36,994 bases of DNA from a virus, in IMG/VR virus record IMGVR_UViG_3300022752_000190, positions 1-36,994 of that record; one strand, written 5' to 3'. This document shows positions 39 through 13,111 of the stretch, in pieces. Under the pieces are notes generated by a model, which was not told where the DNA came from, did no database searches, and saw nothing but the letters and a program-made list of their open reading frames with translations. The position numbers and the translations under genes are program-made. The first letter of the stretch is position 1. Every line of letters starts with the position of its first letter.

Positions 39-3000
39 TTAGATTTGGCTTGCTAATTCTACAAAACCTTTGTTTTGCTTGGTAGTTTCCACTCCCCCAA
101 TTACACCACGTTCTCGCTTCATTGCGGCCATTGGTGCTTTAAAAAGGTCGGACATTGGTTGTCTTTTGTATCCATTTGACACACGGGAATCTTCCAATCG
201 CTGGAATTCTTCACGGGCTTCGGCCATACCTTTGGCGTCATTTTCCCTGTACGCTTTGACATACGCACCTTTAATATCTGTTGACTTCTGTGCATAAAAC
301 TTGTCGTACTCAGCTTTTACATTCTGGGTAAACTGACGGTTAGTCACAGTGTTTGTCGGCAAACCCACAGCTTGGAAGGCGGCATCAACCATGCCAAAGT
401 CTTCTGGCTTAAGAACGAGGTCACCATTACGCATGGTGATACCCTCAGAACTAAAACGAGCTGCCTTCATTACGTTGGCAAATCCGTTGGGCAGGGCCAT
501 CTCTAGGCCCTTGTAATAGTCGCCCTTCAAAATCATCCCAAACGCATCAGCAAACTTCATCGACATACTGGCACTTGGCCCCATCGCCGCCACAATAATC
601 TTCTCTGCACCAGAACGGCTGGTCAAGTCGCCTTGCGCAAACGGCAGGATAGAAGCCACACGACCCATACCCAGCTTGTCACTGACATCCACACCCAAGG
701 AAGCAGGTACTCCCCTCAAAAGCAGGTCAGCAACAACCTTGTTGTCAATCATGCGGCGCAACTTGAACTCAAAATCATCGGGTTCATCTGGGTCTCCCAG
801 AATCTTGGACATCATCCATGCGATCTGGTTGAAGAACGGAACAGCCATCGCGCCGCCAATCACAGCCATCTGTGCAGTGATAAACCCAAGGGCTTTGCGG
901 GCTACCATCTTCTCATCAGCCGATGCACCCTTGAACGCATTGTTCATCAGACGTGCCAGCATGGACAACTGAATAATCTGGAAGCGGCGGAACTGTCCAA
1001 TTACTTTACCAAACCCGCCAGTCAATGCACGCGGAGTGTTGAAGCCATCGTATGAGCCGTGTGTATCGGACACCACTTGGGCAGCGTACTGTGTAGCAGC
1101 TTCGGTATTGTTGTTGCCATAACGAGCCAAGTATCCACGGTATGCAGCGATGGCAGCCACGGAGCGGTTAACAGCTTCGATGCGGTTGTTCACACCCTGC
1201 ATCTTGTACATCACCTTTGCAAAGATACCCTTCTCGTCAGCCGTGGCTCGTTCATCAGCATCCATACTAATGTCAATCTTACCCATACCAACCAGCTTAT
1301 TGAGCATGTCGCGCACATCAGCAGGAGCCTTGCTAAAGTCAATATGGTCGTTGATGCCTAAGCCTTTGACCAAGCTAGCGATGTCTTTGTACCCACGATT
1401 GACTTGAGATACAGCATTACTGTAACCAAGGCGACCAGCCAAATATGGCACGGATATCACCGCAGTTTGTAAAATCTGTTGCATGTAATACGCTGGGCTG
1501 AATGTCAGACTCCACAACGTGTTCATACGATTAAGTGCAATTACCAGCGTACTGGGAGTTTTGTACTCCATGCTATTGGCTTGGCGTTTCATCAACTCGT
1601 TGTAGATGGGCATGGCCTCACGGCGCTGATTCTTAGCCTCATTACGCATACGTTCCATCGAGTCAGTGATGGCGTCATTGTGCTCCAACGTAGACAAGAA
1701 GTGAGCATCGGCACGGCCACTGGTGGCCAAGTTACGCATCATGTTGTCATCGGCACCGGCCACGTTTTTACGCTGTATCTCAGACTTACGTGCGCTGGCT
1801 TCAGCCACGGTCATCAAGTACAAATCCCCAACCATCTTATTCATGGAATGGAAGTTTGCAGAAGATATGTCGCCATCACTGACTTGACGTTGCAGCAGGT
1901 TGCGCAAGCGACTAACAGCCAAATGGATATCACCGCCGCCTGTGTAGGACTCTTCGGCTTCTTTCACACCAGCATCTTCTGGCATGATGTCGTAGTTACC
2001 TGTGGCGTGCAGCCGGTCAGCAATGGTGTCGGCTTCTGATTGGGTCTCAGCAAACTGCACTACGTAGTGGTCAGCGTTGGAGATATTTTCTTGCAGCCAG
2101 TCTTTGGCTTGTTGCATATCCCAGTCACCCAGCTTGGCACGTTCTTCGTAGTGCTTGAACTCAGCAGACTTGGCAACCACCACATAGTCACCGTAGCGAC
2201 CAAGGTAGGCATAAGGCGATGACACGTCGATACCACGGATTTTGGCTTCACGGGCAAGCAGCAGTTTCTTTTCTTTGGCCAGCTCTTGCAGCTGTTCTGT
2301 GTCGCCCATAACGGCTTTTTCACGGTCAGCAAACTCGCGGTCGATGGCGGCTTCCACTGCTTTCTTCTTGAGCATCAGGGCTTCGTAGCCGTGTTCAAAC
2401 ACATCCTTAATTACTTTCTGGGCAGCAGAACCTTCGCCAAAAGCGTCAAACCGTTCTTTCATCTCTGGGTCAACAGTAAACAGCTCAGTTCCCACACGGT
2501 GTTCGCCGGGGTAGTAGCCCCACAAGCCACTGACTGTAGAGTCCTTGATGAACTTGTTGACTGAGTTGGCTCCAGTGCCTTTATATTCACCAGACAGCTT
2601 GTCAAAGTCGGACAGAATTTTATTGATACGCTGTTCAAACTGGATGCGTGTAGCTTGCCGTGCGTACTGTGCATTCAGATAGTCATTGGCAGACTTCATG
2701 TACTTGGACGCCAGCTTGACCACGTCTTCTGTAATAGCAGACGCATACACAGTGTTCTTGGCTTGGTGCAACAGGTCGGTCACCAGACTGCGCGTAGTGG
2801 TGCGTATAAACGAAGGCAGGCGATTTATCGTCTGGTCAACAGTAGCGGCAGGGTTGATACCAAACTTAACCTGTTCTTTGTCCGCGCCAATGTTGGTAGC
2901 CGCACGGAATATGTTTGCATCGTTGAAGACAACAAGGTTTCGAGTGATGTCTTTGTTATCAACAACTTTATCGCGGCTACGAGCATCCAAGAACTTGATG

Positions 3001-6000
3001 CCTTTGATGCCCAAACTATCCAACAACATGCTGGATGCCTTGTTAGCCTTCATGCGGTCTGACCCGGGGACATCATGGAATATCTTGGCATCTGCTTCAT
3101 GCGCTTTATTCAAGATTGTTTTATAAAGGTCAGCGCCGGTCAGTTCTTCCCAGTCAGCATTGAGCTTACCCAAGTAGCCTTCCAGCAAACCTTCAGCCTC
3201 AAGACTATCCTTAATTTTGGCCAAGGCATCTTGGACTTCCTGCGGCATAGCACTGATCTTCTCATCCCAGTTCAGTGTTTCGTTATCTTCCATGTTGACG
3301 TCAACACGCATCAGGGAGCCTACGGGATTGTTTGATGTCCTATTAACATAGTCCGACATCTGAGCAATTTGCTGGTCGGAAAAAAGCGGAGAACCGTCTT
3401 TTTTGAAAATTTGATCAGCGGCTTTATAAGACAAAGCCCCCGGAGTTTTATTCCCAGTAACTTCGATAGTGGGAATATACAAATTACCGGAACGCATACG
3501 CAAACGATGCAGCATAGTCAAACCAAGTTTGATCGGTGTTCCGCCATCGCTAAAATATTGTTGTTGCTGTTGAAAGTTGTTCAATCCGCCATAAGAATAA
3601 GCAAGCTCGTTAAGCCCGGCTTTTGTTTTACGCTTTATGTCAGCTGTCCTATAACCTTCGGCAATACCGTAACGCTGAGCAAAGTATGAACCCCAGCCGT
3701 ATGCTTGAGCGCCTTCACCAGTACCCATGTACTGGTGGTTAAATTTACGGAACTCAGCAGCCGTGCCGTGCCATGTGCCAGCAATTTCCAAACGAGCAGC
3801 GCCGTAGGCCATATTGACCACATCTTGTGCGGTCAAAGATTCTGGTTTGAAGCCAAGTTTACGGACGGCATTTTTAAAGCCAGCCCACAATGTGCGGAAC
3901 CAACTACCAAATGAGCCTGTCAATTTTGCGGCAGCAGTTGGGTCAACACCTGACAGAATGGCTTCTTCAACAAAGTACGCAATCAACTCAGACATCACGT
4001 CTTCATCTGCTACCTTGGCGTTACCTACACGATCAATGGCTTTACGTGCCAGTACAGATTCTTTGGAGTTATTGTTGAGATCAGCCCAAGTTCCGATCTG
4101 GCTAGCCAAAGCAATAATATCTTTTTCTGCAAGCATCCGGTCAAGACCAAGGTGGCTACCCACTTCGTGCATAAACTTGGCACGACCCTGACCTTCTTGG
4201 ATACGGCTTGCAATCAAAATAACTTTGCCGTTACGTTCCCAACCAAAGGCTTTATCATTTGACCAACCAATAGCTTGGTCGCGCAAGTCTTCAAGTTCAG
4301 CCACATTGTCAACGATAAGTACGTTCCGGCCAAGAGCATCAACCCGCATGAACGCTTTGAGTTCAGCAATCAAGGACTTGGCAGTGTATGGTTTTGCAGG
4401 TGCTGTACCTTTACCGAACTTGGGTTGTTCTACTTCTTGCGGAGCCGTGACAATTTGGTTGACAACAGCTGCAAGGTTGGCTTTACCACGGTTTGCCAAG
4501 TCATCAAAACGTATTCTTTGATCTTTGTTGAGATCGCTGTAAGCTGGGAGCTCAGGTGCAAGAGTGCGTAGTTCATTCCATTGTTCCTCTGGGGTTTTTA
4601 CTTCTTCGACTTTGGTTTCTGTTTTGGCTTGCTCAACTTTTCCGGCAGGCTTTTTGGGTTTGGTGTTTCCTTTGCCCACCGTTTTGCCACCTCCGGCTGG
4701 TTGGCGAACATCTCCCTCATCTGCGCTTTCGACTTGAACGGCATTTGTTTTCTCCAGTTTGGCTGATGCTACGGATAAAGTTTTTGTGAGTCCGTTTTGG
4801 AACTTTACAGTAACAGTAGTTTCTGCGCCGTCACCAGCAAAGCTTTCAACGACACCAGTTCCTAGTTTGGGGTTGGCTACTGTATCTCCAACATTTAAAC
4901 CTTTGCGGTCGGCTTTACGTTTTGTACGAGCTTCAGCAACCAGCTTGTCTCGCTTTGTTTGTTCGGCGACATCAACTTCTGGTTCTGCCTCTGTCTCTGT
5001 CTCTGCCGTTGTGGTTTCACCTGTTAAATCAGCTTCTTCATCTTCTGCATAGGCAACAGTTTTTTCACCCTTGCCTGCTCTTTCTTTTTGTAGCTCAGCG
5101 TACTTAGCCCAAGCTTTAGCTAAATCTGCCGCAGCTTTTGTATCAGTGGGGTCTGCGTTTACTTTGGCTTGCAGTTTGTCAATTCGGTTTAGGATGACTC
5201 TACCTTCAGAGTCAACAGCCCCTTGGCTTCCGCCTGCATTTGCAACAGTTCCCATAGTGCGGTCTTCACCGCCTTCACCGCGCTGCATTTCTTCAGCCAG
5301 CAGTTTGCTACGGTCACCTTCTTGTTCACCAGCCTCAAGTTCTTCAGCCAGCGTTTGGGATTTATTGGCCTCGTACTCAGAACGAGTGGCATACAAGCCA
5401 GCTAACTCACCTTCACCAATGCCATCAGGAAATTCCACAGAACGGAAGTTAGCGGCTTCGGCTACTATCTTCACGGCAATGTCTGGGTCAACCACAACGT
5501 ATTGCCCAATCTCTCTGTCCATCTTGACGCCCATGCGCTCAATTTGTTTTTGAACAGCAGCTTCTGACATGCCTACCAAATCAGCAATGTCTTTTTCCTT
5601 GAACTGTTCCAACAAAGACAACCGCAAAATCTCTGCACGTGTTTCAGCATTAGCCCCTTTAGTAGTAGCCAATACTTTGTTAAACAACTCCAGAATGATG
5701 TTTATGCGGCGTTCGCTTGAGATGTGGGCGAGGTCGGAGGCGTAGTAGCCAATGGTTGGGCTGTATTTTCTTGGGCCGTTTTGAACAGTTTGCTCACCCA
5801 CAGCGCCTGTGGCGGTTTGTTGAGGTTGATTGGGTGTTTGCCCTTCACCCACCCCACGTGTGGTTTGTTCATTTACTTGCCCTTGCGCTGGCTGACCACC
5901 AGAAACGTTGGGGGTGACACTGGTGCCATTCCGTATTCCTTCTCCTGATGGCTGTCCAGTTTGCTGGCCAGTCTGTCCTTGAGGCTGACTTCCTGTGAGG

Positions 6001-7916
6001 AGGGATTGAACTCCGCTGGGTTGTACATTCCCAGTGTTTGCCCCATTGCTTTCTCCTGCTCCGCTTTGGATTGGTACTGTTCCCACCCCGGTAGTTGTTT
6101 GCTGTTGCAGTCCATTTTTAGCTCCTTTGGTTTGTTGTGACGCAATATAACCGTCCGTGTCTCTGCCTGTCAGAGCTTCATGGATAGCGTTGATTTGTTC
6201 AAGTTGATTTCCTTTGGCTGTAACTGAAAGTGTATTCAGATTACTTGCAGCCATCTCCACAGAATCTACATGCCCGATCTGGAATTTGTCTGTTACCTTT
6301 GCCAAGGCTTGTAGGGCTTTATCAGCGGATGCAACTGGGTTATTGCCGTTGTACGTAAAGCTTACCAAAGGACTTGGCTTTTCTGTAGTGCCTAACACAG
6401 CATTTGCTTGAGATATGGCATTTGCAATTGCATGAGCTTGAGGTGGCAACGCTGCTACTTTAGCAGCCAGTGCTGTACCAAATGTATTGACTTGCGGGCC
6501 AAGAATAGTCTGGCCAAAAATCTGTAATGACCCTTGACCTTCTGGGTTGTAAACAGCTCCAATTTTGGAGAAAGCATCTTCACGTGCAGCTTGTTCTTTT
6601 TGAGCTTGATTTACTTGTTGCTGTTGTTGATTTGCTGCGGCATTTGCTTGAGCAATGTCCGTAGTTCCGCCTGTTACAGCTGGAGCCGCAGGCGTGATAG
6701 GTGCTGTTGTTTCTGGTGCAAGCTGTTGGTTATATAACGAAGAACGACCCGCAAGTGGATCAGTTCTACCAGCAGTGCCGCCCATTTGTTCGGCAAGACG
6801 GTTTACAGGGATTGCAGTGGGCGTTGTACCAGTAGTAGTCTGTTGAAAAGTTTGTTGAATATCGTTGGTTGTCTGCTGACCAGTTTGAGTATTTGTGTCA
6901 GTATTTGCGTTGGGGATAAAACTTTCGCTGCGTCTCCAGCCGCCCAAACCACCGCCCATAAGTCCGCCAAGGGTAGCGCCGCCAATAAAGGATTCTTTGA
7001 ATCGCTCGTTGGATTTTTCGTTGAAGAACTGTTCTGTGGGGTCAACGGCCATGCGGCCAGCTTGGTTTATAAACTCTTGACCTGTCTCAGAAGCACCTTC
7101 TTTAAGAGCTGCAGTTGTACCAGTAGCCGCAGTTCGGGCCAAACCGCCTTTAAGCCCTGAGACATTGTCCAGTAAGTTGAGTGGGTTCTTAAATAACTGT
7201 GCTCGTCCTACAGCACTTTCAACACCAATTACGTTTAACGCTGCGTATGGCACGCCAAGGGCAAATGCAGAAGCTGCATCAGTTTTACCGCCAGTTTGTT
7301 CCCGTTGATTGGACAATACATCGCCAACAGCGGAAGGATAAGACGCAGCCGCAACACCAACGTCGGAACCAATGTTCAATGCACGTTTTGCACGTGCAGC
7401 AGCAGCTACGTCACCAGAAGCCTCGGCAGCAGCCAAAGCAGCGCGAGTACCGCCCATAGCCAAACGACCACCAATACCACCAACCAAAGCTTCGCCAAGA
7501 TATGGGGCAGACTGAATTGCTAAACCAGTAGCGTAATTTACTCCGCTTGAAAAATCGTTTACGTCTTTGTACGACTCAACGGCCCCCATGTCTTTAGCAC
7601 GGGTAGAAGCTACGTTGGCTTGGAATTCATTAGCACGGCGTTTTTCAGCCAAGTAATCTCTGACGCCACTAAAACCTACTGCACCAGCTAGTTCTTCGCC
7701 TACCCCTTGTAGGTTACCAACGTAGTTACTGATTGCTGCTGTAGCCCGCTTTGATTCACGGCCACCGGAACCGGCGTCATACCCAAGGGTACGAGCAACT
7801 TCTACCGGATTCATTTTTACTGAATCCGCGTATGACTGAATCAAATCTTCATCAGAAACACTATCCCAGTCTTTTCCGACAGCACTACGAAGATCAGAAA
7901 TTGAACGGATTGGCAT
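39..7916 (-). CDS. Giant polyvalent internal-virion/ejection protein with metallopeptidase-like and ADP-ribosyltransferase-like domains
   Basis: At 2,625 residues this is the largest gene in the window. An alanine/glycine-rich N-terminal part (about 1-330) leads into a Gln/Thr-rich low-complexity linker (about 340-700). A helix-turn-helix-like stretch follows near 760-800 (KDIADLVGMSEAAVQ), then a small beta-barrel-like module near 1003-1058 (NVGDTVANPKLGTGVV). A metallopeptidase-like segment has HEVGSH at 1250-1255 and a downstream SELIAYFVEE. A segment at about 1383-1665 (HGT at 1383, GTGEGAQAYGWG from 1398, NLVVFND near 1659) matches my memory of ADP-ribosyltransferase domains of phage polyvalent proteins. 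The C-terminal part (about 2110-2600) resembles the LPD38 region and has a hydrophobic stretch near 2340-2365. Polyvalent proteins are thought to be injected with the DNA and act on host targets. AAGG lies just before the ATG, and the gap to the upstream gene is 3 bp. Family assignments are from recall; enzymatic activity is inferred. Confidence 0.85.
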   Translation of the reverse strand: MPIRSISDLRSAVGKDWDSVSDEDLIQSYADSVKMNPVEVARTLGYDAGSGGRESKRATAAISNYVGNLQGVGEELAGAVGFSGVRDYLAEKRRANEFQANVASTRAKDMGAVESYKDVNDFSSGVNYATGLAIQSAPYLGEALVGGIGGRLAMGGTRAALAAAEASGDVAAAARAKRALNIGSDVGVAAASYPSAVGDVLSNQREQTGGKTDAASAFALGVPYAALNVIGVESAVGRAQLFKNPLNLLDNVSGLKGGLARTAATGTTAALKEGASETGQEFINQAGRMAVDPTEQFFNEKSNERFKESFIGGATLGGLMGGGLGGWRRSESFIPNANTDTNTQTGQQTTNDIQQTFQQTTTGTTPTAIPVNRLAEQMGGTAGRTDPLAGRSSLYNQQLAPETTAPITPAAPAVTGGTTDIAQANAAANQQQQQVNQAQKEQAAREDAFSKIGAVYNPEGQGSLQIFGQTILGPQVNTFGTALAAKVAALPPQAHAIANAISQANAVLGTTEKPSPLVSFTYNGNNPVASADKALQALAKVTDKFQIGHVDSVEMAASNLNTLSVTAKGNQLEQINAIHEALTGRDTDGYIASQQTKGAKNGLQQQTTTGVGTVPIQSGAGESNGANTGNVQPSGVQSLLTGSQPQGQTGQQTGQPSGEGIRNGTSVTPNVSGGQPAQGQVNEQTTRGVGEGQTPNQPQQTATGAVGEQTVQNGPRKYSPTIGYYASDLAHISSERRINIILELFNKVLATTKGANAETRAEILRLSLLEQFKEKDIADLVGMSEAAVQKQIERMGVKMDREIGQYVVVDPDIAVKIVAEAANFRSVEFPDGIGEGELAGLYATRSEYEANKSQTLAEELEAGEQEGDRSKLLAEEMQRGEGGEDRTMGTVANAGGSQGAVDSEGRVILNRIDKLQAKVNADPTDTKAAADLAKAWAKYAELQKERAGKGEKTVAYAEDEEADLTGETTTAETETEAEPEVDVAEQTKRDKLVAEARTKRKADRKGLNVGDTVANPKLGTGVVESFAGDGAETTVTVKFQNGLTKTLSVASAKLEKTNAVQVESADEGDVRQPAGGGKTVGKGNTKPKKPAGKVEQAKTETKVEEVKTPEEQWNELRTLAPELPAYSDLNKDQRIRFDDLANRGKANLAAVVNQIVTAPQEVEQPKFGKGTAPAKPYTAKSLIAELKAFMRVDALGRNVLIVDNVAELEDLRDQAIGWSNDKAFGWERNGKVILIASRIQEGQGRAKFMHEVGSHLGLDRMLAEKDIIALASQIGTWADLNNNSKESVLARKAIDRVGNAKVADEDVMSELIAYFVEEAILSGVDPTAAAKLTGSFGSWFRTLWAGFKNAVRKLGFKPESLTAQDVVNMAYGAARLEIAGTWHGTAAEFRKFNHQYMGTGEGAQAYGWGSYFAQRYGIAEGYRTADIKRKTKAGLNELAYSYGGLNNFQQQQQYFSDGGTPIKLGLTMLHRLRMRSGNLYIPTIEVTGNKTPGALSYKAADQIFKKDGSPLFSDQQIAQMSDYVNRTSNNPVGSLMRVDVNMEDNETLNWDEKISAMPQEVQDALAKIKDSLEAEGLLEGYLGKLNADWEELTGADLYKTILNKAHEADAKIFHDVPGSDRMKANKASSMLLDSLGIKGIKFLDARSRDKVVDNKDITRNLVVFNDANIFRAATNIGADKEQVKFGINPAATVDQTINRLPSFIRTTTRSLVTDLLHQAKNTVYASAITEDVVKLASKYMKSANDYLNAQYARQATRIQFEQRINKILSDFDKLSGEYKGTGANSVNKFIKDSTVSGLWGYYPGEHRVGTELFTVDPEMKERFDAFGEGSAAQKVIKDVFEHGYEALMLKKKAVEAAIDREFADREKAVMGDTEQLQELAKEKKLLLAREAKIRGIDVSSPYAYLGRYGDYVVVAKSAEFKHYEERAKLGDWDMQQAKDWLQENISNADHYVVQFAETQSEADTIADRLHATGNYDIMPEDAGVKEAEESYTGGGDIHLAVSRLRNLLQRQVSDGDISSANFHSMNKMVGDLYLMTVAEASARKSEIQRKNVAGADDNMMRNLATSGRADAHFLSTLEHNDAITDSMERMRNEAKNQRREAMPIYNELMKRQANSMEYKTPSTLVIALNRMNTLWSLTFSPAYYMQQILQTAVISVPYLAGRLGYSNAVSQVNRGYKDIASLVKGLGINDHIDFSKAPADVRDMLNKLVGMGKIDISMDADERATADEKGIFAKVMYKMQGVNNRIEAVNRSVAAIAAYRGYLARYGNNNTEAATQYAAQVVSDTHGSYDGFNTPRALTGGFGKVIGQFRRFQIIQLSMLARLMNNAFKGASADEKMVARKALGFITAQMAVIGGAMAVPFFNQIAWMMSKILGDPDEPDDFEFKLRRMIDNKVVADLLLRGVPASLGVDVSDKLGMGRVASILPFAQGDLTSRSGAEKIIVAAMGPSASMSMKFADAFGMILKGDYYKGLEMALPNGFANVMKAARFSSEGITMRNGDLVLKPEDFGMVDAAFQAVGLPTNTVTNRQFTQNVKAEYDKFYAQKSTDIKGAYVKAYRENDAKGMAEAREEFQRLEDSRVSNGYKRQPMSDLFKAPMAAMKRERGVIGGVETTKQNKGFVELASQI

Positions 7917-7919
7917 TTT

Positions 7920-9683
7920 TTACCTTACTTGTGGGATAGCAGCAGCTTCGTTCTTCATTGCGTTTTCGTACGCTTGTTGTGCTTCAGCCCTAGAGCCAAA
8001 GGTGATGTTGTTTAAATAAGCCAATGGGTTAGGTATCTCTCTGTAATATGGCACAGAAGGGTCTCTTATTGTTTCCGGCAAAGCTGAAGTATATGTCTTA
8101 CCGCCATTAGTAGACCTAAGCGGAATAGCTGTCTGCTTGGCAGCTTCAGGCTTGGCTGGATTTGCTGCAGGAGCATTTGGAACTTCTCCCGGTTTTTTCA
8201 TTTCTCCAACAACAGGCATTGGTAATGCACCAGAGCCGGTACCTTTTTGATAGAAATCTTCAGCGGCTTGGCGTTGCTGAGACAAAGGTAATTCCCTTAC
8301 ACGAAGTTCTTTTCCGGTATTTTTGTCTTTGATACCACTTGGTGCGTCGCCATTTTTTTCAACAAAATCCAATACGTCTTTATTAGTGATTGGTTCTTTA
8401 GCCGCTTTTTCACCAGTAATTTTCTTAAAGAACTCAACGTCTTGAATTTGTTTTCCATCAGGTCGTGCAGCAGAACCATCATTCTTGTTATAACTGATGG
8501 GTGCGCCATCTTTGTCTGTACCAATTACAGCCCAATTACCAGTTTTTTCACCAGCAGCTTTTGCAAGAGCATTTCTATAATTAGCATCAGCGTTGTAGTT
8601 TTTGATTTTGGCATCCATCTCAGCCAGTTTCTTAGGATTATTTTTAACCTCAAGATTAAATTTCTCCCACTCAAGGCCAAGCTTACCTGCGTCCATACCA
8701 AGCCTACTGGCTTCAATATCAACTTTTCTACCTTCAAAACCAAGTTTTGTGTTTTCGCGGGTTTCAGCGAGAGATTTTTCAAAATTGCCGGGTAGTGATG
8801 ACCATTTTTGGAAAGCCATAAATTTAATAGCTTCTCCCACGTTTTTGTCGTCGACAGGATAAGCTGATTTAACTTCGCCTGTTTTATCGTTTGTAATAGT
8901 GAACACGGAAGAACCGTCTTCGTTTTTTATAACCTTGGCAGTGAAACCATCTTTATGGTCTGGGCCTGTGTTGTATTCTTTAGCCAATACATCAGCGGTA
9001 GCCTGCGGGCCTTTTGTAAGCAACATCTCTTGAGAATTACCAAGCCAATCATAAAACTTGTCTTCTTTATCAGCGCGTTTTTCACCACGCTCAAGTTGTT
9101 TTGTTTGTAAAGACTGTGAGTACAGCTGGTTTGCTTTCTCCATAGCAGCAGTATTACCTGATGCACCAGCCATTTGTCTATAGCGAACAAGAGCTTCTCT
9201 TTCGCCCAAGGGTTGGGCAGCGTAAGTCTGACCGTCTTCGCCTTTACGTACAGTAGTCGTACCCAACTGAGCAGCTTTTAACTCAGGGATTGCCGCAGCA
9301 GCTTGGCCACCGGGGGTATTTGCAGAACCGTATCCTTGTAATACTGCGGCTTGTTGTTGTGGAGTAAGGTTACCAAACGCACTTTGAAACGCTTGGCGGT
9401 ATTCTGGTGTAGTCTCAGTTTCACCAGCGCGTTGGCCGATAGGCAAAGCCCCAGTAATATCTTGCGTGGATACACCACCTGTATCTGGTGTGTAGGCATT
9501 TTTTAAAAGTTCGCGGGCTTCACGTTCTTGTTGGTAACGTTCTTCTTCCCGCGCAGCTTGTGCTTTCTGGATGTCCAGAGCTTGCTGGCGCATCTCACGA
9601 TCTTTTTCTCTTTCCTCAAGTTCTTTTGAACTGAGATACCCTTTGGCGGCTCCGCTTGCAAATGCACCTAGATTAAATGCCAT
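7920..9683 (-). CDS. Probable internal virion protein (587 aa, coiled coil)
   Basis: The protein starts with a short hydrophobic Gly/Ala patch (residues 3-16). A highly charged coiled coil of Glu/Arg/Gln repeats covers about residues 20-65, and a long soluble alpha-helical body with many Lys, Glu and Asn follows. I recognise no catalytic motif. It lies between the Ala-rich 314-residue protein and the giant polyvalent protein. In podoviruses this block, after the tail nozzle gene, normally encodes the proteins ejected with the DNA. AAGGG lies eight bases before the ATG, and the stop is three bases from the next start, which indicates co-translation. A role as core or ejection protein is inferred from position and composition, not from a recognised family. 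Confidence 0.75.
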   Translation of the reverse strand: MAFNLGAFASGAAKGYLSSKELEEREKDREMRQQALDIQKAQAAREEERYQQEREARELLKNAYTPDTGGVSTQDITGALPIGQRAGETETTPEYRQAFQSAFGNLTPQQQAAVLQGYGSANTPGGQAAAAIPELKAAQLGTTTVRKGEDGQTYAAQPLGEREALVRYRQMAGASGNTAAMEKANQLYSQSLQTKQLERGEKRADKEDKFYDWLGNSQEMLLTKGPQATADVLAKEYNTGPDHKDGFTAKVIKNEDGSSVFTITNDKTGEVKSAYPVDDKNVGEAIKFMAFQKWSSLPGNFEKSLAETRENTKLGFEGRKVDIEASRLGMDAGKLGLEWEKFNLEVKNNPKKLAEMDAKIKNYNADANYRNALAKAAGEKTGNWAVIGTDKDGAPISYNKNDGSAARPDGKQIQDVEFFKKITGEKAAKEPITNKDVLDFVEKNGDAPSGIKDKNTGKELRVRELPLSQQRQAAEDFYQKGTGSGALPMPVVGEMKKPGEVPNAPAANPAKPEAAKQTAIPLRSTNGGKTYTSALPETIRDPSVPYYREIPNPLAYLNNITFGSRAEAQQAYENAMKNEAAAIPQVR

Positions 9684-9697
9684 GATCTAAACCCTTT

Positions 9698-10642
9698 TTA
9701 TGCTACTTTTTTGCCAAAATAGCCACCGATGCTAGCACCGATTGGGCCACCAAGAGCCATACCAGCCATTGTTCCAAGGCCGCCCCACATAGCGCCTTCA
9801 GCGGCTTGCTGGGCATTGTATGCACCAACGTCAGCTTGATATTTCTGAACACCCAGAGTACCAACTTGCCCCCAGCCGCCCATAGCTGTAGAAGCTGCGG
9901 CATTATTTACACCACTCATAGCGGCAGCATTACCTACCTGCGACTGACCTGCAGCCGTTCCTTGAGCATTAGCATTCAAACTAGTATTGTTTTGGTTCAT
10001 CGACTGCGCTGGTAATCCTGCGTACATGTTGTACACGTTGGCTTGTTTTTGTAAACCAATTTGTTTGGCAGCTTCACGGGTTTGATTCATCGCTGCGGCA
10101 GTAGCAGCGGCTTGCATTACAGAATTTGCATTAGCCTGTCCTTGCGCTACCCCAGATGTTGGGTCAATACCATAAGCACGTTGGCGCATGGCTGTTTGTT
10201 CACGTTGGACTTGTGCGGCTTGACCGATGTCTCCGGCAGCTTGAGATGCCAGCTGTTCTTGATATGCAGCAGTATTGTATTGGTCTGCATCTGCTTTCAG
10301 CTTTTCCATTGCTGGAATTGCGCCTTTCTTATACATGGCATAAGATTCGTCGGCTCGTTCCATATTTTTCTTGGCAATTTCTTGGCTAAGTTCGTAAGCA
10401 CCTTGGAGGCGTGCATTTTGCGCAGCTGTTTGCTTTTGTAACTCAGGGTAAATATTATTTTTAAATTCGTTCCATTGCGCTGTAGCCAAATCAGCCATCT
10501 GTTGTTGAGCTCTACCAATGTTTGGGTCGGGCGCTGGAGCGTCGCCACCATCTTTACCGCCTTCAAAAGTCATAGGGCCAAACTTTCCGTGTCGAGGACG
10601 GAAAGCGTTTATTGGCAACATCTCAAATTCATTGAGTCTCAT
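9698..10642 (-). CDS. Probable internal virion protein, Ala/Gln-rich with C-terminal glycine zipper (314 aa)
   Basis: Residues about 40-210 are Ala/Gln/Met-rich and predicted helical. Residues about 210-260 are Asn/Ala/Ser-rich and probably flexible. The C-terminus (about 285-312) has a glycine-zipper-like pattern (GGLGTMAGMALGGPIGAS) suited to membrane insertion. The composition and the position after the tail nozzle gene fit an ejection protein that enters the host envelope, comparable in role to the small internal virion proteins of T7-like phages. The ATG overlaps the stop of the upstream GNAT-like gene by four bases and is preceded by AGGAG seven bases upstream, which supports this start over internal methionines at residues 8 and 24. 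Confidence 0.75.
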   Translation of the reverse strand: MRLNEFEMLPINAFRPRHGKFGPMTFEGGKDGGDAPAPDPNIGRAQQQMADLATAQWNEFKNNIYPELQKQTAAQNARLQGAYELSQEIAKKNMERADESYAMYKKGAIPAMEKLKADADQYNTAAYQEQLASQAAGDIGQAAQVQREQTAMRQRAYGIDPTSGVAQGQANANSVMQAAATAAAMNQTREAAKQIGLQKQANVYNMYAGLPAQSMNQNNTSLNANAQGTAAGQSQVGNAAAMSGVNNAAASTAMGGWGQVGTLGVQKYQADVGAYNAQQAAEGAMWGGLGTMAGMALGGPIGASIGGYFGKKVA

Positions 10643-11064
10643 ACTTTAACTCCTAGCCAGCGGCATTCTTCTTTCAACATACCGTATAAAACAAAATTTG
10701 TTCCGTCAGTCGCACCCTTACGGATAAGACCTTCACGTTTAAACCCAATGTGCTCATCAAACTTTTGAGCAACAAGATTGTCTTCACGTACTAAACCAGT
10801 TACACGGTTACACTTAAGTTGAATAAACGGATAAGCAAACACGCGCCACAAGTACTCTTTGGTCATCCAACGTTTTCCCGGTACGGCTGCTACGTGCATA
10901 CAAATGGAGGCTTTGGTGTACATGCTGAAAACAACTCCTGCAATTAACTCACCATTTTCTTCAAGCCCTATGCCTACAGCACCGGGGGAGAATTCTTCTT
11001 CATCAATTCGTTCTCCGACCCATCTCAATACGCGTTCATCTTGGCCGTAAACAATTGATTTCAT
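10639..11064 (-). CDS. GNAT-fold acetyltransferase-like protein (141 aa)
   Basis: The order of elements fits the GNAT fold: IGLEENGELIAGVVFSMYT (beta strands), a central VAAVPGKRWMTKEYLW where the acetyl-CoA pyrophosphate loop would lie, and a C-terminal VREDNLVAQKFDEHIGFKREG, typical of the final helix-strand unit. The Q/RxxGxG loop is degenerate, so catalysis is uncertain. Similar GNAT-like genes occur among podovirus tail and internal-virion genes, where some act structurally. It overlaps the following internal virion gene by four bases. No good Shine-Dalgarno precedes the ATG, so translation may be coupled or weak. Confidence 0.7.
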   Translation of the reverse strand: MKSIVYGQDERVLRWVGERIDEEEFSPGAVGIGLEENGELIAGVVFSMYTKASICMHVAAVPGKRWMTKEYLWRVFAYPFIQLKCNRVTGLVREDNLVAQKFDEHIGFKREGLIRKGATDGTNFVLYGMLKEECRWLGVKV

Positions 11065-11075
11065 AGGGCTGTATC

Positions 11076-11279
11076 TTACCCGTTTTGATCAATTCTGGAA
11101 AGTATTTGATTGACTTTTGTTATAACGTCTGATAACGAAGCAGATGTACTCAAAGCACTCAAAGCAACAGACCCGGGTCGAGCCCCAGTAATCAACTCCA
11201 CATTGATCTTCAAAGGTTCAATAACTTGCGCCATATTCTGCGGCAGGTTTAACGTTCCGGGAATAGCTGGTTTTTTCAT
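11076..11279 (-). CDS. Small protein after the tail nozzle gene (67 aa)
   Basis: This short protein begins MKKPAIPGTLNL and ends in a helical segment rich in Ser, Leu and Ile (SLSDVITKVNQILSRI). It has no signal peptide, cysteine cluster or membrane segment. The ATG overlaps the stop of the nozzle-like gene by four bases, so it is co-translated with a virion gene. It is probably a minor structural or assembly protein. I do not recognise the family. Confidence 0.65.
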   Translation of the reverse strand: MKKPAIPGTLNLPQNMAQVIEPLKINVELITGARPGSVALSALSTSASLSDVITKVNQILSRIDQNG

Positions 11280-13111
11280 GATTGTTTCAACTCACCGATG
11301 CTGGTAGCCATACGGAACTGACGGATGGGGGCGTTTCCTGTCAGCTTGATTTCATATATATAATTTTTATTACTTGCGGGAAGGCGCACTGGCTCTTGGC
11401 TAGTAATACCTTGAGAAAATATCTGTGTATCGTCAGCAATTATTGACGCTTGGATATTTCTAAGGCTAGCTACCGCTGAAACGTTTTGCAAAAGGTTTCC
11501 ATTTACAGGAAATTCGTTCAGATAATTACCATTTAGCGAACCGCGCAAATCAGTTGTACCAGACCACAAAACTTGGTTTGCAGCAATAACTGCAGCAACA
11601 GCTGTATTATATGCAGTGGTGTCGCTAATGTATGCCCAATCTGCTTGCAGTTTAAGCGCCGCAAAGCTCATGGGTTCCGGCATTACAAACTTCTTTGACT
11701 TCCATTCATAAACTAAATTGTTTACAGTATCGGCATCCAGTTGATAAATTAAGTTATCTAATGGATTAAGTATATATACATTAGCAGTTGACCGCTCAAG
11801 AAATATACAAGTCGCGGCTGTACTTAAACTGATTAGCGGTGGGTTATCGCCACGTATGATAACCAAGGCTGCTTTTACAGAGCCTGATTGGTAGAACCCG
11901 ATGTACATATTTTGGTAAATAGCGCCAACCATAGTCGTGGGCAAGTACGTAGACCACTCATCTCGGGTGAATAACTGCCTTGTAACCACATCCTGAGCGC
12001 CGGGGGCAATATTTACAAGCCCGTTTGGGCTGGCATAAAGAACACCATACTGGTCACTGGCAATTGATTTCTTTGATACGCAAGGCTCAAAGAGACTGAG
12101 TTTTTCCTGAGACATTGCGCCGGGACTAGAACCTGTAATAAGGTATGTGGCTTTGCTTGTACATACAACTAGCGTCTGACCGTACACCCCTAAACCGACA
12201 ATTGGAAACCCTACCGTCATCATGTAGCTTGATGGCCATGCGTGAGGAAGATATGGTTCGCAGAACCAAACTTGGTTATTAGTAAACCCCGCCAAAATGC
12301 CGTTAGGCATAGCAATTAATCCAGTTAAGCCAGATGGTGGTGGTATGTAATATAGTGATGGAAGGGCAGTCCCAAGAGCGGCTGCCAAGAGAGTGTCTGA
12401 AAAATTATTAGCAGCTACACCTGTAGCTGGGTTGACGGCAACTTGACCAACATACAAATATGTAACAGACGCTGTGCCAGCCACTGCCCGATAAATACGG
12501 ATCGCAGTGATGTTATATCCGGCGGAAGCCAAAGGCGCGGTGGCAAATCCACTGACTGTAACTGTAGCGCCTGTGACAAATGAAGCGACTGTAGCTGCCG
12601 GGCTTGGGCCTGATTCTTCTAGCACAGCGCCAAATGTACTGACGTACGTATATACATACGTTCTAGTTTCCGCAGTTGTACCACCTGCGTTTGCAAGTGA
12701 TGGTGCAGCTGTTGGGTTTGGCACACCCATCTGATAATAAGCATCAGGAAACGGTTTAGTCCCTGTGCCGTTAGTAGTTGCCAAATTCCAATTTGTTTTT
12801 TTCGGAGTGCCGTCACCAGTGTAATAAATACGAAAATCTGTTGTGTCGGCTACAGGGCCGGGAGCAACGTCTACATCTGTAGTCCACTCAAGCCAGACTT
12901 TATCTCCTGTACTTGTTTTTTCAAGCTGGTATATTGTCTGGACGTTGGAGGTTATCCCGGGTGTATATGTAAGTAATGGTTTTCTCCAAGGGCGAAGTTC
13001 ACCAGATTGAAGTTTTACGTCCGATGCTGTTTGTGCTTGGTTTGGTGCAAGCTCGGTTGGGCTGATACGGGGGGCGATCCCTGAAAACTGTTCTAATTTG
13101 ATAGTAGTCAT
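11276..13111 (-). CDS. Tail nozzle-like protein (611 aa)
   Basis: The N-terminal pattern, IKLEQFSGIAPRISPTELAP followed by a GELRPWRKPL segment, resembles the start of podovirus tail nozzle proteins (the T7 gp12 type), which form a beta-propeller platform at the tail tip. A fibronectin-like stretch with TYVYTYVSTFG lies near residues 150-170. The rest is beta-rich and contains GLIAMPNGILAGF, which fits a propeller blade. The length is close to that of other nozzle proteins. GGGGCGG lies just before the ATG. It precedes the internal virion genes, as in T7-like gene order. It is separated from the adaptor genes by the fibre and lysis cassettes, which is unlike T7. Confidence 0.75.
   Translation of the reverse strand: MTTIKLEQFSGIAPRISPTELAPNQAQTASDVKLQSGELRPWRKPLLTYTPGITSNVQTIYQLEKTSTGDKVWLEWTTDVDVAPGPVADTTDFRIYYTGDGTPKKTNWNLATTNGTGTKPFPDAYYQMGVPNPTAAPSLANAGGTTAETRTYVYTYVSTFGAVLEESGPSPAATVASFVTGATVTVSGFATAPLASAGYNITAIRIYRAVAGTASVTYLYVGQVAVNPATGVAANNFSDTLLAAALGTALPSLYYIPPPSGLTGLIAMPNGILAGFTNNQVWFCEPYLPHAWPSSYMMTVGFPIVGLGVYGQTLVVCTSKATYLITGSSPGAMSQEKLSLFEPCVSKKSIASDQYGVLYASPNGLVNIAPGAQDVVTRQLFTRDEWSTYLPTTMVGAIYQNMYIGFYQSGSVKAALVIIRGDNPPLISLSTAATCIFLERSTANVYILNPLDNLIYQLDADTVNNLVYEWKSKKFVMPEPMSFAALKLQADWAYISDTTAYNTAVAAVIAANQVLWSGTTDLRGSLNGNYLNEFPVNGNLLQNVSAVASLRNIQASIIADDTQIFSQGITSQEPVRLPASNKNYIYEIKLTGNAPIRQFRMATSIGELKQS

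What the first reader, a model, noticed from the sequence alone, without database searches (positions are those of the whole stretch)
39..7916. 2,625-residue polyvalent protein with protease-like and ADP-ribosyltransferase-like domains delivered with the genome
One gene carries a helix-turn-helix-like segment, a small barrel, HEVGSH (1250-1255, HExxxH rather than canonical HExxH), an ADP-ribosyltransferase-like domain (1383-1665, GTGEGAQAYGWG) and an LPD38-like end. Its position at the end of the internal virion genes suggests it is packaged and injected as an effector. A protease-like segment beside the toxin-like domain suggests self-processing in the host.
Basis: partly seen in the sequence, partly recalled or inferred. 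Interest (0 to 1): 0.8.

Follow-up and report, generated by a model that had tools for sequence, protein, structure and literature searches.

The report
Phage injected multi-enzyme protein with cassette
A phage makes one giant protein, probably carried in its particle, that holds a metalloprotease-like domain followed by an exchangeable ADP-ribosyltransferase; the type is already described, but related phages show that the enzyme behind the protease is swapped like a cassette and that the same short motif marks the joints, which makes the proposed self-cutting testable.

Summary
The ORF is real: 2,625 aa, minus strand, 39-7916, last gene of a late virion operon. It is a phage 'polyvalent protein' (Iyer et al. 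2017, PMC5512222), a class whose HEXXXH metallopeptidases, H-Y-D ADP-ribosyltransferases (ARTs) and proposed self-processing are published. The ART is well supported: H1383 and Y1411 are kept in 86/87 and 87/87 relatives, and a confident model of the ART in the same slot of an 86%-identical relative matches PARP/diphtheria-type folds. HExxxH and E1310 are invariant in 71/71 relatives, but no solved zincin was matched. The HTH passes Pfam's cut-off; the small barrel is tudor-like, sub-threshold. 'LPD38-like end' is not supported. New here: the position behind the protease is a cassette slot (two kinds of ART, LPD23, LPD39, other sequence, or nothing in relatives); between the window and its relative the ART was replaced at codon 1384. 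A motif [KRQ][FY][GS] marks the joints before the protease and after the cassette (34/50 and 40/50; 7% by chance) and is enriched only in proteins with this protease: candidate processing sites. Virion presence is inferred from synteny with phage JC1, whose DarB-like protein was found in virions.

The parts
39..7916 (-). Polyvalent protein gene, 2,625 aa (P0001)
   Evidence: PHROG 10089 'DarB-like' E 1.4e-49 over residues 908-2580
6897..7916 (-). N-terminal module, residues 1-340; the first about 100 aa diverge (30-40% identity) from close relatives, possible capsid-targeting region (inference from P1 DarB)
   Evidence: PMC9024508
5535..5645 (-). HTH-like segment, residues 758-794 (Sigma70_r4_2-like)
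   Evidence: 26.5 bits, cut-off 25.7
4761..4892 (-). Tudor-like small barrel, residues about 1009-1052
   Evidence: PF21196 E 0.0022, below cut-off; same in L002 and L010
4410..4424 (-). Joint motif PKFGK, residues 1165-1169, candidate processing site upstream of the metallopeptidase
3783..4394 (-). HExxxH metallopeptidase-like domain, residues 1175-1378
4152..4169 (-). HEVGSH, residues 1250-1255; H1250, E1251 and H1255 invariant 71/71; E1310 (window 3987-3989) invariant 71/71
3795..3806 (-). YGAA, residues 1371-1374, end of the protease module; G1372 and A1374 in 70/70, A1373 in 68/70
2889..3782 (-). ADP-ribosyltransferase cassette, residues 1379-1676 (H1383, GTGEG 1398-1402, Y1411, LD 1643-1644, SR 1647-1648, NLVVFND 1660-1666)
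2856..2870 (-). Joint motif VKFGI, residues 1683-1687, candidate processing site downstream of the cassette
1917..2849 (-). 'Mid' chassis module, residues 1690-2000
42..1919 (-). C-terminal chassis module, residues 2000-2625, shared at about 25% identity with 48 phage records (DarB-like/PLxRFG proteins)
7920..9683 (-). Upstream gene, 587 aa, at the position of JC1 gp68; only about the first 70 aa are conserved in L002
9698..10642 (-). Virion structural protein (phrog_8003), homologue of JC1 gp64, which was found in virions
10639..11064 (-). GNAT acetyltransferase (phrog_4470), homologue of JC1 gp63 and Atu_ph08 gp24
11276..13111 (-). Internal virion/head-closure protein (phrog_511), homologue of JC1 gp61

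Best explanation
This is a phage polyvalent (DarB-like) protein, most likely packaged in the virion and delivered with the DNA. A conserved chassis (N-terminal part, HExxxH metallopeptidase, 'mid' and C-terminal modules) carries an exchangeable effector directly behind the metallopeptidase; in this phage it is an ADP-ribosyltransferase of the ART-PolyVal type that would modify a host macromolecule early in infection. The metallopeptidase probably cuts the chain at KFG-type sites on either side of the protease+effector unit (near residues 1166 and 1685), freeing a piece of about 57 kDa. Shown: domains, conserved active-site residues, ART fold in a family member, cassette exchange, motif enrichment. 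Inferred: virion packaging, injection, catalysis, the cleavage sites, the target.
For: ART: H1383 86/87, Y1411 87/87, GTGEG nearly invariant; Pfam ART-PolyVal hits 60/64 members of the alignment; model of the compact ART in the same slot of L002 (pLDDT 86, pTM 0.81) matches tankyrase ART domains and a diphtheria-toxin homologue at Foldseek probability 0.98-1.00. Peptidase: HExxxH 71/71, E1310 71/71. Cassette: between window and L002 nucleotide identity falls from 86-92% to 44% at codon 1384 and recovers after about 1670-1690; peptidase and ART trees disagree; in 80 loci found by the peptidase alone the slot holds GTGEG-ART (53), canonical ART-PolyVal, LPD23, LPD39, other sequence or nothing. 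Joints: motif in 34/50 and 40/50 linkers against 7.1% of random windows; enriched only in proteins with this peptidase (156 against 98.8 expected; controls 38 against 55.3 and 18 against 20.9). Virion: synteny with JC1, whose gp64 and DarB-like gp69 were found in purified virions.
Against: No mass spectrometry of this phage. JC1 gp69 is not a direct phmmer hit of the window protein; the link is the shared PHROG 10089 and gene order. No solved zincin matched the peptidase. The third ART catalytic residue is unsettled: where the family mostly has D, the window has N1665 (D at 1666). The joint motif was noticed before it was tested, on the same proteins; the proteins are related to each other; and the motif is absent from a third of the linkers upstream of the peptidase.
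Confidence: 0.6

Rival explanations
1. The metallopeptidase-like domain does not cut its own chain: it is an effector that cuts host proteins, and the KFG-type motif is only a linker feature or a recombination joint.
For: Iyer et al. note that N4 vRNAP, pSa ArdC and RP4 TraC1 travel uncut although they hold MPTases, and that some MPTases may act on host proteins. A repeated short joint could also serve as the place of module exchange.
Against: The motif is enriched only in proteins that carry this peptidase clade and stands at both joints in unlike linkers. The DNA of the two window copies is not the same, which speaks against simple sequence-driven recombination.
Confidence: 0.25
2. The ART is a defence or superinfection-exclusion factor expressed from a prophage, not an injected effector.
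For: A minority of phage ARTs belong to toxin-antitoxin systems (PMC9503650).
Against: The domain is built into a virion-type protein encoded at the end of the late virion operon, 3 bases after the preceding gene; PADLOC gives no match.
Confidence: 0.07
3. The protein is mainly an internal virion/ejection structural protein; the ART and peptidase domains are degenerate passengers.
For: The part shared with distant phages is the C-terminal chassis; seven distinct relatives have an empty slot.
Against: Active-site residues are nearly invariant across very divergent relatives, which degenerate passengers would not keep.
Confidence: 0.08

Closest known systems
Phage polyvalent proteins (Iyer et al. 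2017, PMC5512222)
   Same: Very long multi-domain protein in a late virion gene cluster; zincin-like HEXXXH MPTase, H-Y-D type ART, MPTase-ART fusions, proposed self-processing
   Different: Slot directly behind the peptidase with documented cassette exchange, and a recurrent joint motif; neither was found in the parts of that paper read or searched here
DarB-like proteins of Bcep22-like podoviruses (JC1 gp69) and Atu_ph08 gp21
   Same: Same position at the end of the same run of virion genes; shared PHROG 10089; Atu gp21 shares the C-terminal module (E 2.5e-41)
   Different: Those match DNA methyltransferase and helicase families and are 4,500-4,900 aa; JC1 gp69 is not a direct sequence hit
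ART-PolyVal (PF18760) / Tox-ART-HYD2 clade
   Same: H in strand 1, Y in strand 2, GTGEG region; PARP/diphtheria-type fold
   Different: Window member has a long internal insertion and is sub-threshold for the Pfam model on its own (18.5 bits, cut-off 31.2)
T4 Alt
   Same: Proposed role: ART packaged in the head and injected
   Different: Alt is of the R-S-E clade; this one has H and Y
Polymorphic toxins
   Same: Exchangeable effector next to a releasing protease
   Different: Here the effector is internal and the carrier is a phage virion-type protein (comparison from general knowledge and PMC5512222)

Membership tests
Phage polyvalent protein | Two or more unlike enzymatic domains in one long polypeptide | tested here: met
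   HExxxH peptidase-like and ART domains
Phage polyvalent protein | Late virion gene context | tested here: met
   Synteny with JC1 and Atu_ph08 virion genes
Phage polyvalent protein | Packaged in the virion and injected | not testable with these tools
   Only by homology and position: JC1 gp64 and gp69 in virions
ART-PolyVal / H-Y-D ART | ART fold | tested here: met
   Tested on the homologous ART of L002; the two-domain window model gave BFVD ART-PolyVal hits but no PDB hit
ART-PolyVal / H-Y-D ART | H in strand 1 and Y in strand 2 | tested here: met
   H1383, Y1411
ART-PolyVal / H-Y-D ART | Catalytic D in strand 5 | tested here: inconclusive
   Window reads FND: N1665, D1666; D1644 also nearly invariant
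ART-PolyVal / H-Y-D ART | Pfam PF18760 gathering score | tested here: not met
   18.5 bits, cut-off 31.2; 60/64 alignment members match at E 0.01; this is a library threshold, not a biochemical feature
Zincin-like MPTase, HEXXXH set | HEXXXH helix and downstream E | tested here: met
   71/71 for both
Zincin-like MPTase, HEXXXH set | Zincin fold | tested here: inconclusive
   No PDB match by profile or by the two-domain model
LPD38 (PF18857) | Match to the LPD38 profile | tested here: not met
   No match; the model does work on related L168, 2.8e-32
T4 Alt / R-S-E ART | R-S-E active site | tested here: not met
   H and Y motifs instead

The most novel reading that the evidence does not exclude
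The HExxxH peptidase clade is a self-processing enzyme that recognises a KFG/KFS-type site repeated at the module joints, so that a constant virion protein can carry and release interchangeable effectors: a plug-in delivery system within one polypeptide.
Probability: 0.35. Interest if true: 0.75.

Novelty: new member of a known kind. Interest (0 to 1): 0.45.

Why it matters
Self-processing of injected polyvalent proteins was proposed in 2017; no defined cut sites were found in the literature searched here. A clade with an invariant active site, empty-slot and swapped-effector relatives, and a motif that tracks the peptidase gives concrete sites to test, and shows how phages could change injected effectors while keeping the packaging part.

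Tried and rejected
LPD38 assignment: rejected. PDB sequence search with the whole protein and with the peptidase profile: nothing; the ART profile against PDB gave only chance helical hits to gp41 constructs. Foldseek of the two-domain model against PDB: nothing above chance, so a compact ART from the same slot was modelled instead. Relatives of the window's peptidase+ART region by exact peptides in genome contigs and viral contigs: none; alignments were needed. Testing the joint motif in distant polyvalent proteins (Atu_ph08 gp21, JC1 gp69, F116, vir555, L009): weak or none, so the claim is limited to this peptidase clade. Recombination through identical DNA at the joints: the two window copies differ.

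Full report
The observation. The window is a whole IMG/VR record of 36,994 bases, a virus fragment. The ORF 39..7916 is on the minus strand, 2,625 aa without interruption. HEVGSH lies at 1250-1255 and GTGEGAQAYGWG at 1398-1409. It is the last gene of a run of minus-strand virion genes: terminase, portal, major head protein, tail and fibre-like genes, internal virion protein, GNAT, structural protein, a 587-aa protein and then this gene, 3 bases after its neighbour. The order from head-closure protein to polyvalent protein is that of Burkholderia phage JC1 (gp61, gp63, gp64 ... gp69) and, apart from the strand of the last gene, of Agrobacterium phage Atu_ph08.

Relatives. An 86%-identical protein of 3,094 aa lies in L002, and a partial one in L001. 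In 48 phage records only the C-terminal part, about 2025-2580, is shared, at about 25% identity. PHROG 10089, 'DarB-like antirestriction', matches over 908-2580; the same PHROG takes JC1 gp69, which was found in CsCl-purified virions with 51 unique peptides (PMC9144972). Direct comparison of the two proteins by phmmer gave nothing at E 1e-3, so virion presence here rests on position and on the shared family, not on a direct orthologue.

The ART. In an alignment of 87 sequences H1383 is kept in 86, Y1411 in 87, and the GTGEG, LD..SR and N-[YLF]-VVF stretches are nearly invariant. Pfam ART-PolyVal matches 60 of 64 members, the window member itself only weakly. A model of window residues 1165-1690 was of medium quality (pLDDT 73.7, pTM 0.61); it matched ART-PolyVal and MuF-type proteins in BFVD but nothing in the PDB. 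The compact ART that fills the same slot in L002 modelled well (pLDDT 86, pTM 0.81), and the 50 best PDB matches are tankyrase ART domains and one diphtheria-toxin homologue. I take the ART fold as supported. The third catalytic residue is open: the family mostly has D where the window has N1665, followed by D1666.

The peptidase. A search with the peptidase alignment alone found 252 relatives in viral contigs, of which 80 loci were kept. HExxxH is present in 80/80; in 71 non-redundant sequences H1250, E1251, G1253, H1255, G1257, W1277 and E1310 are invariant. This is the active-site form that Iyer et al. describe for one set of polyvalent MPTases (PMC5512222). No zincin structure was matched.

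The cassette. Between window and L002 the gene is about 86% identical in DNA over most of its length, but from codon 1384 identity falls to 44% and recovers only around 1670-1690. The L002 ART is much shorter. Peptidase sequences put window and L002 together with full support, whereas the window ART is nearer those of L011 and L013 (40-44%) than that of L002 (25%). Across the 80 loci the place behind the peptidase holds a GTGEG-type ART in 53; others hold a canonical ART-PolyVal (L147, L157, L162), LPD23 (L113, L117, L122), LPD39 (L151), other sequence (L130, L163, L168), or nothing: in L139, L142, L152, L153, L156, L161 and L167 the peptidase is joined to the 'mid' module with a gap of -8 to 33 residues. 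The 80 kept are the best-scoring of 252, so the proportions lean towards window-like proteins. L002 and L010 also carry an extra module with a YkuD-like L,D-transpeptidase upstream of the peptidase, absent from window and L001.

The joints. Linkers upstream of the peptidase and upstream of 'mid' share a short motif, in the window PKFGK (1165-1169) and VKFGI (1683-1687). In 50 non-redundant proteins [KRQ][FY][GS] occurs in 34 and 40 of these linkers, against 7.1% of random windows of the same proteins and 5-6% of shuffled linkers. The longer form is enriched in proteins with this peptidase (156 against 98.8, s.d. 9.1) but not in long ART proteins without it (38 against 55.3, s.d. 7.0) nor in other ORFs of the same contigs (18 against 20.9). 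Cautions: the motif was noticed before it was tested, on the same proteins; and these are related sequences. The specificity control and the occurrence at two unlike places are the stronger arguments.

Mechanism. I think it most likely that the protein is packaged, enters with the DNA, is cut by its own peptidase at these joints and so frees a peptidase+ART piece; the ART then modifies a host component. The domains, the conserved residues, the ART fold in a family member, the exchange and the motif statistics are shown; packaging, injection, cutting and target are inferred. For the class, P1 DdrB is processed before packaging while N4 vRNAP is not (PMC5512222), so the time of cutting is open. 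P1 DarB is directed to the capsid by its N-terminal 30 residues (PMC9024508); the window's N-terminus is among its most divergent parts against L002, and whether it acts so is unknown.

Verdict. LPD38 is not supported. What is added is the exchangeable slot and the candidate processing sites.

Noticed in passing
L002:14150-14539 (residues 1384-1513) and L010: YkuD-like L,D-transpeptidase module (SRYSFGCINV) in the polyvalent protein, absent from window and L001; no YkuD or transpeptidase is named in the main text of PMC5512222.
   Followed up: partly
window 7920-9683: 587-aa protein of which only about the first 70 residues are clearly conserved in L002's 764-aa counterpart; the rest diverges.
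   Followed up: no
window 10639-11064: GNAT acetyltransferase kept at the same place among virion genes in JC1 and Atu_ph08.
   Followed up: partly
window 7617-7916: The first 100 residues of the polyvalent protein are only 30-40% identical to L002 while most of the chassis is 80-95%.
   Followed up: no
L168: HExxxH polyvalent protein that ends in a true LPD38 domain (2.8e-32) instead of the chassis C-terminus.
   Followed up: no
L139, L142, L152, L153, L156, L161, L167: Natural versions without any effector between peptidase and 'mid' module.
   Followed up: partly
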